From the NCBI RefSeq assembly GCF_964204645.1, contig NC_134026.1:7378001-7442000 (forward strand): 64,000 bases of DNA, written 5' to 3'. The notes beneath the pieces were generated by a model, which saw only the letters and a list, made by a program, of their open reading frames with translations, did no database searches and was not told where the DNA came from. The translations under genes were made by a program, and so were the position numbers. Source of the DNA: Tubulanus polymorphus. Lineage: Eukaryota; Nemertea; Palaeonemertea; Tubulaniformes; Tubulanidae. Position 1 is the stretch's first letter. Each line of letters begins with the position of its first letter. Positions 13,701 through 40,900 of the stretch are shown piece by piece.

Positions 13701-16700
13701 ATCTTCATACAAGTGATGCTGATTTTTTATTTTCTTCAGTGCACGTTTAGACGCGAATTCTTATTATCAGGAATTTCTGTTATTTCTAGGATACGGAACT
13801 ACAACAGAAAATTGACATCGAGATAAAAATGAGAGATGGAACGGCGAAATTACTGGCTGCATCTAAACACCCCGTACAATTACTGGAGGCTGCTAAGAGT
13901 CTATTGACATCGAACACTAGAGTTTTAGCTTATATGTCTGAATTACAGAAACGTAAATCAGATGAGATACTTCATAAAAACAAGTGAGTTCCCTTAACCT
14001 TCAACACCTCTCCTTCCTCTCACCTTTGTCTCTTGAATTTTGTTATAGATGTTGCTCTCGCGCCCCACACATAAAATGTTCAATTTCAGTCCAAAATTTG
14101 TATCAAATTAAACTCTGAGTCATAAACTAACCACTAGTCATGCACTCCTTTCATTACTAGTTGATTATAGGCCTACTAATCTGATCAGCTAGGGCCAACT
14201 TCGGTTTTCGTAGCTAATTGACTAGTGATCGGAACTAATAACCCCGAACGCACTATAGTTTGGCTGTAACGTATTTCACAGTGTTGGCCATCTTCGAAAT
14301 GGGTCGGGACTACAGCGACCGTGCTCAATCCTGTGGTCCGGACCATAGTTCCGACTAACTGATATTTGGTTTCGTTTAATTCGACTTTAGTCGATAACCG
14401 AAGTTTGGCTAGGGTTAGCTGTCATCAGATCATATGACCAGTCAATGTTGGTTCACCAGCCAATTGAAACCCTGGGTTGTGAACAGTTGATTCAATTTGA
14501 CGATGTCATGGTCATTCAATATGGCTGCTATTTGAGCTGCATGGTTGATTATTTTTAGGATAGCACAAGGAAATCAAGTTCCATGTAAGGCTAAAGTTGC
14601 ATTATCAGGTAAACTCATTATATATATTCAAGGGAGAATAGGGGTATGTGTATGTAGTCAGGGTTTCAGGGAGTTTAATCAACTATAATGAATATCTGTG
14701 ATGTGTTAATGTATTACAGATATACGAATACCATTGATGTGGAAAGATTCGGATCATTTCAAAAATAAAGGAGGTATATATTTTTTCTCATTCAAATTAA
14801 GACTTTTACTGTGTTCTAATGCATCATTATAGAATATTTCTATGGATTTACACCTAATACTCAAGTAAACATTATCATTTGCACATTTCTTGATTCATGC
14901 TATGTATGCTTTATTGTGTATGTCTGTATTGTGAATACTGTATTCTTTTTCCCTGTATTGTGTATGCTGTATTGTGTGGTCTGTATTTTGTATTGTGTAT
15001 GGCTGTATTTTGTATGCTGCATTCTTTATGCCTGTATTGTGTGTGTGTATGGCCGTATTTTGTATGCTGTATTGTGCATGGCTGTATTTTGTATGCTGCA
15101 TTCTTTATGCCTGTATTGTGTGTGTGTATGGCCGTATTTTGTATGCTGTATTGTGCATGGCTGTATTTTGTATGCTGTATTCTGTATGCCTGTATTGTGT
15201 ATTGTATTATTTCAGATCACCGCCGCTATGCTGTATTTTGTATGCTGAAAATTGGAACTGAAATTTTTGACACAACGTTGATAAAATCAGTTGATAGAAG
15301 TCTAACGGATATCACGTTTAATGATGTGATTATCTTGTAAGTTCTCATCGTCGTAGTAACCTCTCGTTTTAACGGATTACATTGTTAAACTCTGTTTTGA
15401 AATGTTGATTTTGTTTCGTTTTGTTTTTTCAGCAATGAGATAGGGTTTGATTTCCAGTGTATATTAGAGGTTTACTGTCATAAAGTTCACGACGATTTGA
15501 CGATAGCGAGCACTCCGAAGAAATTGAAGAAAAAACTGAATGAATTTTCAAACTCGCTCGGACAAAACGTCGGTCGAAGACTGTCGGGACTCGTACGTAT
15601 CAGTTCATACACATCCGAAATCTCAATATCTAAACCCGATATTTCAATGATTTCTCATAAATCTCAAATACTTTAAAGATACTTTATTTTTATAGACCTC
15701 ATATTTTGATATATTTCTCATAGTTCATCTTTGAATGTCAGATATTTTGCAATTTAGTATTTACAGAATCTCGGATACTATTTTGATATTCTGTGGATTT
15801 GTTATATTCTGTAGGTTTTGCTTATTAACTATTTCACGTACATTGTTTTACAGAAAGATGAAGATATAATGAACAGTATGCTAGTGTAAGTGTCTTTCTT
15901 CCACTCTCTCATATATCTACAGCACTATGATAATAATTATTGATATTTATATAGCGCAGGTATCCTAACCTGAGTGAGTTTAGATGCGCTCCAATTTTGG
16001 TATTATTACCCCCCAGCCTATAACTCTAGTCTATGTATCAGTCATCTCTTCCTAAGGAGAAGTAACATCCTAGCAGCTTTTAAGCGCTTAGGAGTCATTT
16101 ATTAGGCCAGGGCCCCATTTACTCCTGGGTGGAGAGAGGCAATAAGGATAAGTGTCTTGCGCGAGGAGATTACAGCAATGTACGGGGTTCCAACCCACAA
16201 CCTGGCTTCCCAGAGTCGAACGCTCTAACCGCTTGGCCACACTGCACGCTTACCTGCTATAGTTGTCTGAGTATGAGTGTTTGTGTATATTACAGAGGTC
16301 CCAGGTTTGATCTCGTGGCTCAAGCGACGTTAACTGTGGATGAAATAAAAGACTCAATCGGAACTTATGAATTGAAATTAATGAATACTTCAACTAGTTC
16401 AGGTAAACATCTCTGTTTCTGAGTCTCCCTCTCTCTCTCTACATCAATATACATCAGTGTTTAATGTGTCTCAATGATTTTCTATATGCTCTGTGATGTT
16501 TAATGATGTTCTGTGATGACAACATGATCCATGATGTTTAATGATGTTCTGTGATGTTTTTTGTTATAGGAGGTGATGTTGGTTTAAACAGTGAATTACC
16601 GTTATTTGGTCATTTCTGTTGTCGTTTGGCCGCTCAACCGTACTGTTTACTCAGTGATACTGTATCCGGATACTTGCATTTACAGGTTAGCAGCTACACT

Positions 16701-37915: not shown

Positions 37916-40900
37916 TTAATGCACTGAGTTAATCTCACAGCCATTGTTATCCTGATTTTCAACAATAGTGTTTAAAATGTCGACGATTTCACTAAAACAC
38001 GGCCGCTTTTGATATTCGTATTCCCAACAACGTTTAATCAGCGGCTCCACCTGGCGAGGAACATTATCCGGTATTTTCAATCTGATTCCTGCTTTAAGCG
38101 TAGACGTCACCTCTTCGGGGACATGTTTTGGAGTCAGTTCATTCGGGTGTTTACCTTTAGTGAATATCTCCCAGGCAACGATTCCATAACTCCAAACATC
38201 ACCTTCGGACGTGAATTTATGATTCAGTAAACCTTCAGGAGCCGTCCTTAAAATAGAAACATTTAAAACCTTCAGGAGCCGTCCTTAAAATAAATGCATT
38301 CAAAACCTTCAGGAGCACTCCTTAAAATAGAAACATTTAAACATTCAGGAGCATTCTTTAGAAAAGATACACTTAAAACCTTCAGGAGCAGTCCTTTCAA
38401 TACGAAGAAACATTCCTTGAAATAGAAACATTTAAAGCAATGACCCTGAGTCGCATAAACTATTTTTCATCTTTGATATTGAACCGTGTCTTATCACTTA
38501 CCAGAAAGCTGGTATTTCTGATTTTTCACTGCGGTAATAATCCCGTTCCGGGTCGAGGAATCGGGCCAGTCCAAAGTCTGATATTTTAGCGCAGAGTTTT
38601 TCATCAATGAGAACATTACGAGCGGCTAAATCACGATGTATGATCTTCTGTGAGTTCAAATACAACATTCCCTGTATCAATACAAACCATAAACTGTATG
38701 AGTTCAAATACAACATTCCCTGTATAAATACAAACCATAAACTGTATGAGTTCCCATACACTGTATGAGTTCAAATACAACACTCCTTGTATCAAAACAA
38801 TCAATACACTGTATGAGTAGTTCAAATTTAACATTCTCTGTATCGATACAAACCATAAACTGTATGAGTTCAAATACAACACTCCTTGTATCAAAACAAT
38901 CAATACACTGTATGAGTAGTTCAAATTTAACATTCTCTGTATCGATACAAACCTTAAACTGTATGAGTTCAAATACAACACTCCTTGTATCAAAACAATC
39001 AATACACTGTATGAGTAGTTCAAATTTAACATTCTCTGTATCGATACAAACCATAAACTGTATGAGTTCAAATACAACACTCCTTGTATCAAAACAATCA
39101 ATACACTGTATGAGTAGTACAAATTTAACATTCTCTGTATCGATACAAATCATACACTGTATGAGTCCAAATACAACATTCACTGTATCGATACAAACAA
39201 TACACTGTATGAGTTCAAATTCAACATTTCCTGTATCAATACAAATGATACATTGTATCAGTTCAAAATCAATATTCCCTTAAATACAATACATCACAGG
39301 TGTACAGGAAAATGACATAGTGACAATAGAATTTGCATCATTACTATGGTAATTTGTCCATTGGGTAACCAACTATTGAGCAACTGCAGCCTCTGAACTG
39401 TATATTTGCTGCATACGTACCTGCGCTATTTCATAACACCATCTTAACTGTGATTCACTAGTGATTGTGTCCTTATTCTTTTTGAGGTAGGTTTCTAAAC
39501 TTCCATTAGCCACATATTCCATCACTAAGGCAGTCGTTTTATCTGTCAACAACAATAAGTTTATTTATTAGAAACCAAAACAGCTCCCTTGTTGCCATAT
39601 TTGATTCCATCCATGTACATACCTTTCACCGACATTCCCAGAAATCTGACGATGTTTTTATGAACTAATTGTGCCATTAATTCAATCTCTTTTATCAAAT
39701 CTTTCTCCAATATTTTTCTTCTTTGTCGGAGAGTTTTAATCGCTACATCCTTTCCTTCGTATTTGCCTTTATAAACTACACCGTAATGACCCTAAAATAT
39801 ACATTTTATCCTTATAACTGCCCTCTATATTTGCCATTATAAACTAACCCATAGCGACCTAGAAATATACATCAAATTCCCCAGAAGTACGTACTTGTCC
39901 CAGTAGGAGGCAAGTCTCGTCAAACTGTACATTATTCAAGATATTTGGATGTTTTTCTCCAGATGGTTTCCTCACTTTATAAGCTGAAATCATAGACAAG
40001 TTCTGCAGTTAAATCTAATTGTACAGCTAAGATTAATTCGATCATTTTCAATGTTTTCACTCGAACAGTCAAACAGCGGTAACTAGAACAGCGGAACCAG
40101 GTCCAGAGATTTATCAAGGTGTATCTAAAGTCAAGGTGAATCTCAAAACATACAAACTACAAAATTTAACTAGATAAACCATATGTCTCGGTTAAAAGAT
40201 TCAAGAGCACTTTTAAAACATTTTAAATTTGTAAAAAATGATACATACATTGAGGTGTTTTAGTAGTCAGTAAAGGTTGGCCGCTATGAGTGCCAGTGGC
40301 AAAACTCTCCTCCGAGTCCGGAGACGAGACACCCGTCTGCTGATCCGACCCTCTCCTCGTCGGCGAGGATATTACTCCGTGATTCACTCTACTCCACGAT
40401 GACAACGCCCCCGATTGTTTCAATAGGGGGCGCTGACTGTCCGTACTATCGGTAACCGTACTGAAACTATCCGACGGTTGAATATTCGCGTGAGCTCGAA
40501 TCCAGTCTTGCACGTGATCGAACCCTACGCCTCCGCTCGGCGGGATACAACCAGCGATATCGCGCGACATCGTTGTCGCCGGTAGAAACGGTTGTATTGT
40601 CGGATGTATTTTAACGTTATTCGGTCGTTTAATTGTTGTCTGAGACGATGTGGCTTCCTTAACGATGAAATCTCCAGAACTTGGTGATAATAAACCCATG
40701 TTAATCGGGTAATAGTATTCGTGTTCATCAGATGCCGGTGAATTGATATTCGTGTGATACTGATACACTGCAAATATACAGAGATACATCTTTGATTGAT
40801 ACAGTAAACTCTCTCAGCCTTAGACACTATTATCCCCTGAAAACTGCTTAGTCTGGCTCCTGTCACCGAAAGCCTTAACCCTGCACCTTCAAAGTGCCAG

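What the first reader, a model, noticed from the sequence alone, without database searches (positions are those of the whole stretch)
14890..39885. Recurrent architecture: coding-segment boundaries are units of tandem arrays extending into introns or UTR
At five or more sites in three unrelated genes, the exact junction between non-coding DNA and a conserved exon is one unit of a tandem array that continues outside the exon. Sites: rhotekin exon 15216 and its stop codon; the BDH1-like last exon 29855; JAK exons 38671, 38246 and 39791. The exons are real because their protein matches extend beyond the repeat. Chance overlap so often in 25 kb is unlikely. Possible causes are replication slippage seeded at splice-site polypyrimidine tracts, or microhomology-mediated end joining. 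A consequence is many decoy 3' splice sites.
Basis: partly seen in the sequence, partly recalled or inferred. Interest (0 to 1): 0.85.

Follow-up and report, generated by a model that had tools for sequence, protein, structure and literature searches.

The report
Splice-junction minisatellites ("mirages"), mostly by chance
In this animal genome some short repeat arrays include the edge of a protein-coding exon, so that the intron holds false copies of a splice site; the copies are real, but the effect is already known from amphioxus, is uncommon across the genome, and is about as frequent as random repeat birth in short introns would give.

Summary
At four acceptors (JAK-like 38246, 38671, 39791; BDH1-like 29855), units made of intron tail, AG and 18-33 nt of exon head are repeated upstream in the intron. 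At rhotekin 15216 only exon nt +12 to +32 resembles the array. The rhotekin stop codon lies in the first unit of a 3'UTR array. All five acceptors, and none of 31 donors, are outliers among 31 curated introns.

Of 720 splice edges from 81 loci chosen without looking at repeats, 4 show the same: 1 of 359 acceptors, 3 of 361 donors. So it occurs across the genome, rarely, and not only at acceptors. If array seeds fall uniformly over short introns, arrays of window plus sample should straddle 5.1-7.3 edges; 5 do. The window is a local cluster, picked because it is striking; its excess over the sample (p 0.0003) is only partly explained.

The kind is known: "mirages" of amphioxus genes. This assembly (12 large contigs, 268 Mb) is not Branchiostoma. 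Six of 16 AG-bearing copies score at least as well as their real acceptor; one is in frame and open. Use needs RNA.

The parts
38229..38396 (-). 37-bp array across the acceptor of the last JAK-like exon (exon starts at 38246): 18 nt of exon head plus 4 intronic copies, 3 of them with AG at the aligned place
   Evidence: TRF; sequence; unit walk; kinase domain
38651..39280 (-). 48-51-bp array (about 99-bp higher-order unit) across the acceptor of the JAK-like exon starting at 38671: 21 nt of exon head plus 12 intronic copies, 8 with AG
   Evidence: TRF; kinase domain
39759..39871 (-). two-copy diverged duplication across the acceptor of the JAK-like exon starting at 39791 (glycine loop), in a 103-bp intron
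   Evidence: (z 9.4); not reported by TRF
29830..29987 (-). 31-bp array across the acceptor of the last BDH1-like exon (starts at 29855): exon head plus 4 intronic copies, each with TTTTGTAG
   Evidence: TRF
14903..15247 (+). 79-bp array in a rhotekin-like intron ending at 15207, eight bases before the exon at 15216; exon nt +12 to +32 resembles a unit but the acceptor is not repeated
   Evidence: TRF; z 6.8; Anillin domain
20940..21143 (+). 35-bp array in the rhotekin 3'UTR whose first 11 nt are the last coding nt and the stop codon (20948-20950)
   Evidence: TRF
38672..38719 (-). in-frame decoy: acceptor copy at 38719 scores 5.85 against 5.26 for the real site at 38671 and would add 48 nt (16 aa, no stop)

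Best explanation
These are ordinary minisatellites whose founding duplicated segment happened to straddle a splice junction ('mirages'). A tandem duplication of (intron tail + AG + exon head), or of (exon tail + GT + intron head), leaves one intact junction beside the exon. If the cell keeps using that exon-proximal junction, the extra copy is silent intron sequence and may expand into an array by slippage or unequal exchange. Because introns are short (sample median 253 bp, window 372 bp) and units run to over 100 bp, a fair share of randomly placed seeds will cross an edge. Arrays grow only into the intron because growth into coding sequence is removed by selection. Shown here: the junction-spanning copies, their presence at both kinds of junction, their low rate in a sample, and rough agreement with uniform seeding. 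Inferred: that the exon-proximal site is the one spliced, that selection limits the arrays, and the molecular process of duplication.
For: Junction copies at 4 window acceptors, plus a weaker one at rhotekin. The same in 4 of 720 edges of 81 loci fetched by domain match: acceptor L075; donors L012, L035, L047, each with the GT inside the copy. Uniform seeding predicts 4.2-5.4 TRF spans in the sample (2 seen) and 0.9-1.9 in the window (3 seen); pooled 5.1-7.3 against 5. Arrays are common in introns: 35 in 31 of 477 sample introns, 10 in 9 of 31 window introns. Arrays of different genes in the window do not share sequence more than other pairs do (no shuffle control). Published mirages have the same anatomy and were reported not to disturb splicing.
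Against: The window holds many more cases than the sample (5 of 62 vs 4 of 720 edges, p 0.0003; acceptors 5 of 31 vs 1 of 359, p 0.00001), all at acceptors, three in one gene. Array density explains only part; with the shortest period and an 8-nt margin the window excess is p 0.06, and that test leaves out 39791 and 15216, which TRF does not count. The null is my own model and assumes that edge-crossing seeds are as well tolerated as intronic ones. The sample is of conserved domains of four families, and loci with exons spread over long distances were left out to save letters, which favours short introns.
Confidence: 0.82

Rival explanations
1. Acceptor-directed mutation: slippage, template switching or R-loop damage at the polypyrimidine tract preferentially seeds duplications at 3' splice sites.
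For: All five window cases are at acceptors, none at 31 donors; against the sample acceptors the excess is p 0.00001.
Against: In the independent sample 1 of 359 acceptors and 3 of 361 donors are affected; pooled with the window 6 against 3. TRF arrays span 0 of 331 sample acceptors and 0 of 35 kinase acceptors.
Confidence: 0.08
2. Regional hypermutability: this stretch of contig C2, or the JAK-like gene, has a raised rate of tandem duplication, and the junction cases follow from that. This can hold together with the main reading.
For: Arrays in 9 of 31 window introns against 31 of 477 sample introns (p 0.0003); three junction cases in one gene.
Against: The 7.5-kb flanks hold one array on the left and four on the right, the first of which continues the window's last array; I made no formal comparison. 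Window chosen after the fact; sample genes are conserved and have shorter introns.
Confidence: 0.3
3. The copies are functional: tandem acceptors used for alternative splicing or to tune JAK output.
For: Six of 16 AG-bearing copies score at least as high as their real acceptor, and the JAK copy at 38719 is in frame and open.
Against: Ten of 16 score lower; 13 of 16 would shift the frame, and two of the three in-frame ones bring a stop. Amphioxus mirages were reported not to give aberrant mRNA. No RNA here.
Confidence: 0.06
4. [quoted passage not shown]
For: That intron minus one 68-bp period leaves about 35 nt, and only 3 of 187 sample introns are that short or shorter, probably model errors (5th percentile 76 nt).
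Against: An exon starting at the same place in the glycine loop (GNFGEVYKG) is predicted in another tyrosine kinase locus (L076), and the 38246 position recurs in L075 and L079, so these positions look old.
Confidence: 0.04

Closest known systems
[quoted passage not shown] the original Adh3 and TnC papers not seen)
   Same: Tandem units span a splice junction; many copies carry AG or GT; both boundaries affected; units of tens of bp up to about 160 bp; most of the array lies in the intron.
   Different: Here in an assembly that is not Branchiostoma (12 contigs of 11.5-32 Mb, total 268 Mb; B. lanceolatum 19 chromosomes and 468 Mb, abstract in the listing), and counted on a sample of edges against a null. 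Length polymorphism and splicing not tested here.
Intron gain by tandem duplication of AG/GT proto-splice sites (Rogers model; Drosophila cases PMC2891723, passages read; potato RdRp PMC4974935, start of abstract in the listing)
   Same: Tandem duplication that includes splice signals.
   Different: Here existing introns gain copies of their own junction; no new intron position was shown.
Intronic minisatellites in general (recalled)
   Same: Unit size, copy number, inner units more alike than the terminal one (BDH1 array).
   Different: The terminal unit doubles as coding sequence and splice site.

Membership tests
Mirage (junction-spanning minisatellite) | Tandem repeat crosses an exon-intron boundary | tested here: met
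   Three window acceptors by TRF, five by alignment (rhotekin only inside the exon); 4 of 720 sample edges
Mirage (junction-spanning minisatellite) | Copies contain the splice signal | tested here: met
   AG at the aligned place in 3 of 4 (38246), 8 of 12 (38671), 4 of 4 (29855) upstream copies and, shifted by one base, in the one copy at 39858; GT in the donor copies of L012, L035, L047. Not met at rhotekin 15216
Mirage (junction-spanning minisatellite) | Occurs at both 5' and 3' boundaries | tested here: met
   Sample: 1 acceptor, 3 donors; in the window acceptors only
Mirage (junction-spanning minisatellite) | Length polymorphism or somatic instability | not testable with these tools
   One assembly, no reads
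Mirage (junction-spanning minisatellite) | Normal mRNA despite the copies | not testable with these tools
   No RNA data
Intron gain by tandem duplication | Intron at a new position, absent from relatives | tested here: inconclusive
   Two of the positions recur in other predicted tyrosine kinase exons, which speaks against; no relatives of this genome are held

The most novel reading that the evidence does not exclude
Mirages are not an amphioxus oddity but an automatic by-product of minisatellite birth in any animal genome with short introns, touching roughly 0.15-1.4% of splice edges here. They would be a standing supply of duplicated, ready-made splice sites from which alternative acceptors and shifted exon edges can evolve, with local clusters such as this JAK-like gene, where one decoy is in frame, open, and scores above the true site.
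Probability: 0.4. Interest if true: 0.5.

Novelty: new member of a known kind. Interest (0 to 1): 0.3.

Why it matters
It extends a phenomenon described gene by gene in amphioxus to another genome, with a sampled rate and a null, and shows that no special mechanism is required. It warns gene finders: mine chose the decoy acceptor at 38719. It offers natural test cases of how the spliceosome chooses among near-identical acceptors.

Tried and rejected
Organism by COX1: no match in G000. Organism by assembly size in the literature: nothing fitting. Branchiostoma is excluded only by contig number and size; other cephalochordates were not checked. That it is a spiralian is a guess from recall.

Related array units across genes (BDH1 and JAK arrays share CAGTTTATGGTT): rejected, because the alignment score of that pair (26) is matched or passed by other array pairs (no shuffle control; the two blocks of the 9-12 kb array are of course alike).

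Intron birth at 39791: set aside because an exon starting at the same place is predicted in L076.

Domain scans of whole window frames gave kinase, Anillin, HR1 and PH matches but no exon list, so I wrote a small gene finder. A search of the rhotekin piece against solved structures gave only weak anillin matches (E 0.17 and 0.38).

A first pass with 132 introns anchored on domain matches gave 0 acceptors and 2 donors spanned (3 donors, with L017, at TRF score 40). In one search one more sample acceptor (L018, z 4.3) passes z 4 but not z 5 and was not counted.

An earthworm metallothionein paper (PMC12783039, passages) has intronic minisatellites and exon-4 copies absent from transcripts; the passages seen do not describe junction arrays.

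Other reports of junction-spanning minisatellites were sought; outside amphioxus I found none, in a library that lacks most subscription journals.

Curated acceptors 15855, 20869 and 39985 are off by 1-2 nt; no array is near enough for this to alter a count.

Rows dropped: L072 repeats part of L045 and was left out. Of 386 matches reported (one search did not list all of its 152), 347 were typed in and 330 lay in the 71 loci used; long loci were left out to save letters. Seven of 331 acceptors and 6 of 333 donors were dropped (intron under 50 nt or exon piece too short). Of 160 matches reported, 35 in 10 multi-exon loci were used.

Full report
What is there. The window is G000:C2:7378001-7442000 of a 268-Mb assembly of 77 contigs, twelve of them 11.5-32 Mb long (lengths). 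In the JAK-like gene on the minus strand, the last exon (from 38246) begins GACGGCTCCTGAAGGTTT after ...CTATTTTAAG; four upstream copies at 36-37-bp steps keep 15-18 of those 18 exon bases. The exon from 38671 begins GGAATGTTGTATTTGAACTCA; twelve upstream copies reach to about 39280. The exon from 39791 has one diverged copy in a 103-bp intron. The BDH1-like last exon (29855) has four 31-bp copies. Rhotekin 15216 is the weakest: the array stops eight bases short and only an inner exon stretch resembles it. The rhotekin stop codon lies in the first 11 nt of a 3'UTR array.

Reality of the exons. Pfam finds the kinase domain in all three JAK exons and the anillin domain in two rhotekin exons. The gene names JAK, BDH1, COX6A and CAP-Gly protein come from recall of what the domains and sequences look like. 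A small gene finder trained on this genome recovers these exon chains in outline, with some spurious exons elsewhere; it chose the decoy acceptor at 38719 instead of 38671. Thirty-one introns were curated from it for the window.

Is it general? I fetched 71 loci holding myosin, kinesin and SNF-transporter exons and later 10 tyrosine kinase loci. They were chosen by domain matches and compactness, not by repeats. Among 336 domain-supported exons, TRF arrays span 0 of 331 acceptors and 2 of 333 donors; among 35 kinase exons none. A more sensitive test aligned 36 nt of exon edge with its own intron, against other exons' edges as null: 0 of 324 acceptors and 3 of 327 donors exceed z 5 in the first set, 1 of 35 and 0 of 34 in the second. 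Printed sequences show clean junction duplications: L012, L035 and L047 repeat exon tail plus GT; L075 repeats AG plus exon head. Together 4 of 720 edges, 95% interval 0.15-1.4%.

Is it more than chance? A fairer null lets each array's founding unit fall anywhere in its intron or across its edges. Sample arrays (35 in 31 of 477 introns) then predict 4.7 edge spans; 2 are seen. The window's 10 arrays in 9 of 31 introns predict 1.7; 3 are seen. With other margins and with the shortest period the pooled expectation is 5.1-7.3 against 5, and the window's own p is 0.06-0.29. So edge overlap broadly follows from array density. Against this reading: the window's array density and its count of edges are both high relative to the sample (p 0.0003 each), and its acceptors alone stand out more (5 of 31 vs 1 of 359, p 0.00001). 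The window was picked for this feature and the sample is of conserved, compact genes, so these p-values are not to be taken at face value, but I cannot exclude a local excess or an acceptor bias.

How it works, most likely. A tandem duplication across a junction leaves an intact junction next to the exon. The other copy is then intronic. Arrays can grow outward and homogenise (the 38671 array has a two-unit higher order; the BDH1 inner copies resemble each other more than the exon copy), while the exon copy is held by coding constraint. That constraint, and the use of the exon-proximal acceptor, are inferences.

Decoys. Of 21 aligned upstream copies at the four JAK and BDH1 acceptors, 16 have AG at or within one base of the aligned place. 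With a matrix trained on this genome, real acceptors score 3.7 (38246), 5.26 (38671), 3.45 (29855) and 2.17 (39791). Six of the 16 copies equal or pass their real site and ten score lower, among them the nearest 38246 copy at 1.97. The 99th percentile of intronic AGs in the sample is 2.99. Three of the 16 keep the frame by length, but two of these bring a stop; only the copy at 38719 is in frame and open, adding 16 residues.

Compared with what is known. The same structures are called mirages in amphioxus: tandem duplications of the 3' end of an intron and 5' part of an exon, or of a 3' exon boundary, many with AG/GT, which did not seem to disturb the mRNA (PMC3087553, passages; PMC3902484, passages). 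The first of these papers proposes them as a source of new introns. I found no count with a null in the papers searched, a limited library.

Verdict. Real, known in kind, uncommon, and explicable without a special mechanism, with an unexplained remainder in the local clustering.

Noticed in passing
window 9019-12135: Large higher-order tandem array (units of about 194-253 bp beginning ATGGCGTG).
   Followed up: no
G000:C4:4125126-4126944: Four neighbouring matches to the same myosin-head segment (model positions 112/119/121 to 152), like mutually exclusive exons.
   Followed up: no
window 33288-34067, minus strand: Open frame that looks, from recall, like a fragment of a non-LTR reverse transcriptase, inside the first BDH1-like intron.
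   Followed up: no
window 17569-18483 (-) and 22109-23197 (+): Long single frames that look, from recall, like rhodopsin-type receptors; the first lies within the rhotekin gene span.
   Followed up: no
L035 (G000:C12:1878150-1887823): Myosin gene rich in intronic arrays (10 counted in introns), one spanning a donor.
   Followed up: partly
G000 C13 and C36: Small contigs whose kinase matches have the same scores and lengths as ones on C3 and C10; perhaps second haplotypes, useful to measure array length variation.
   Followed up: no
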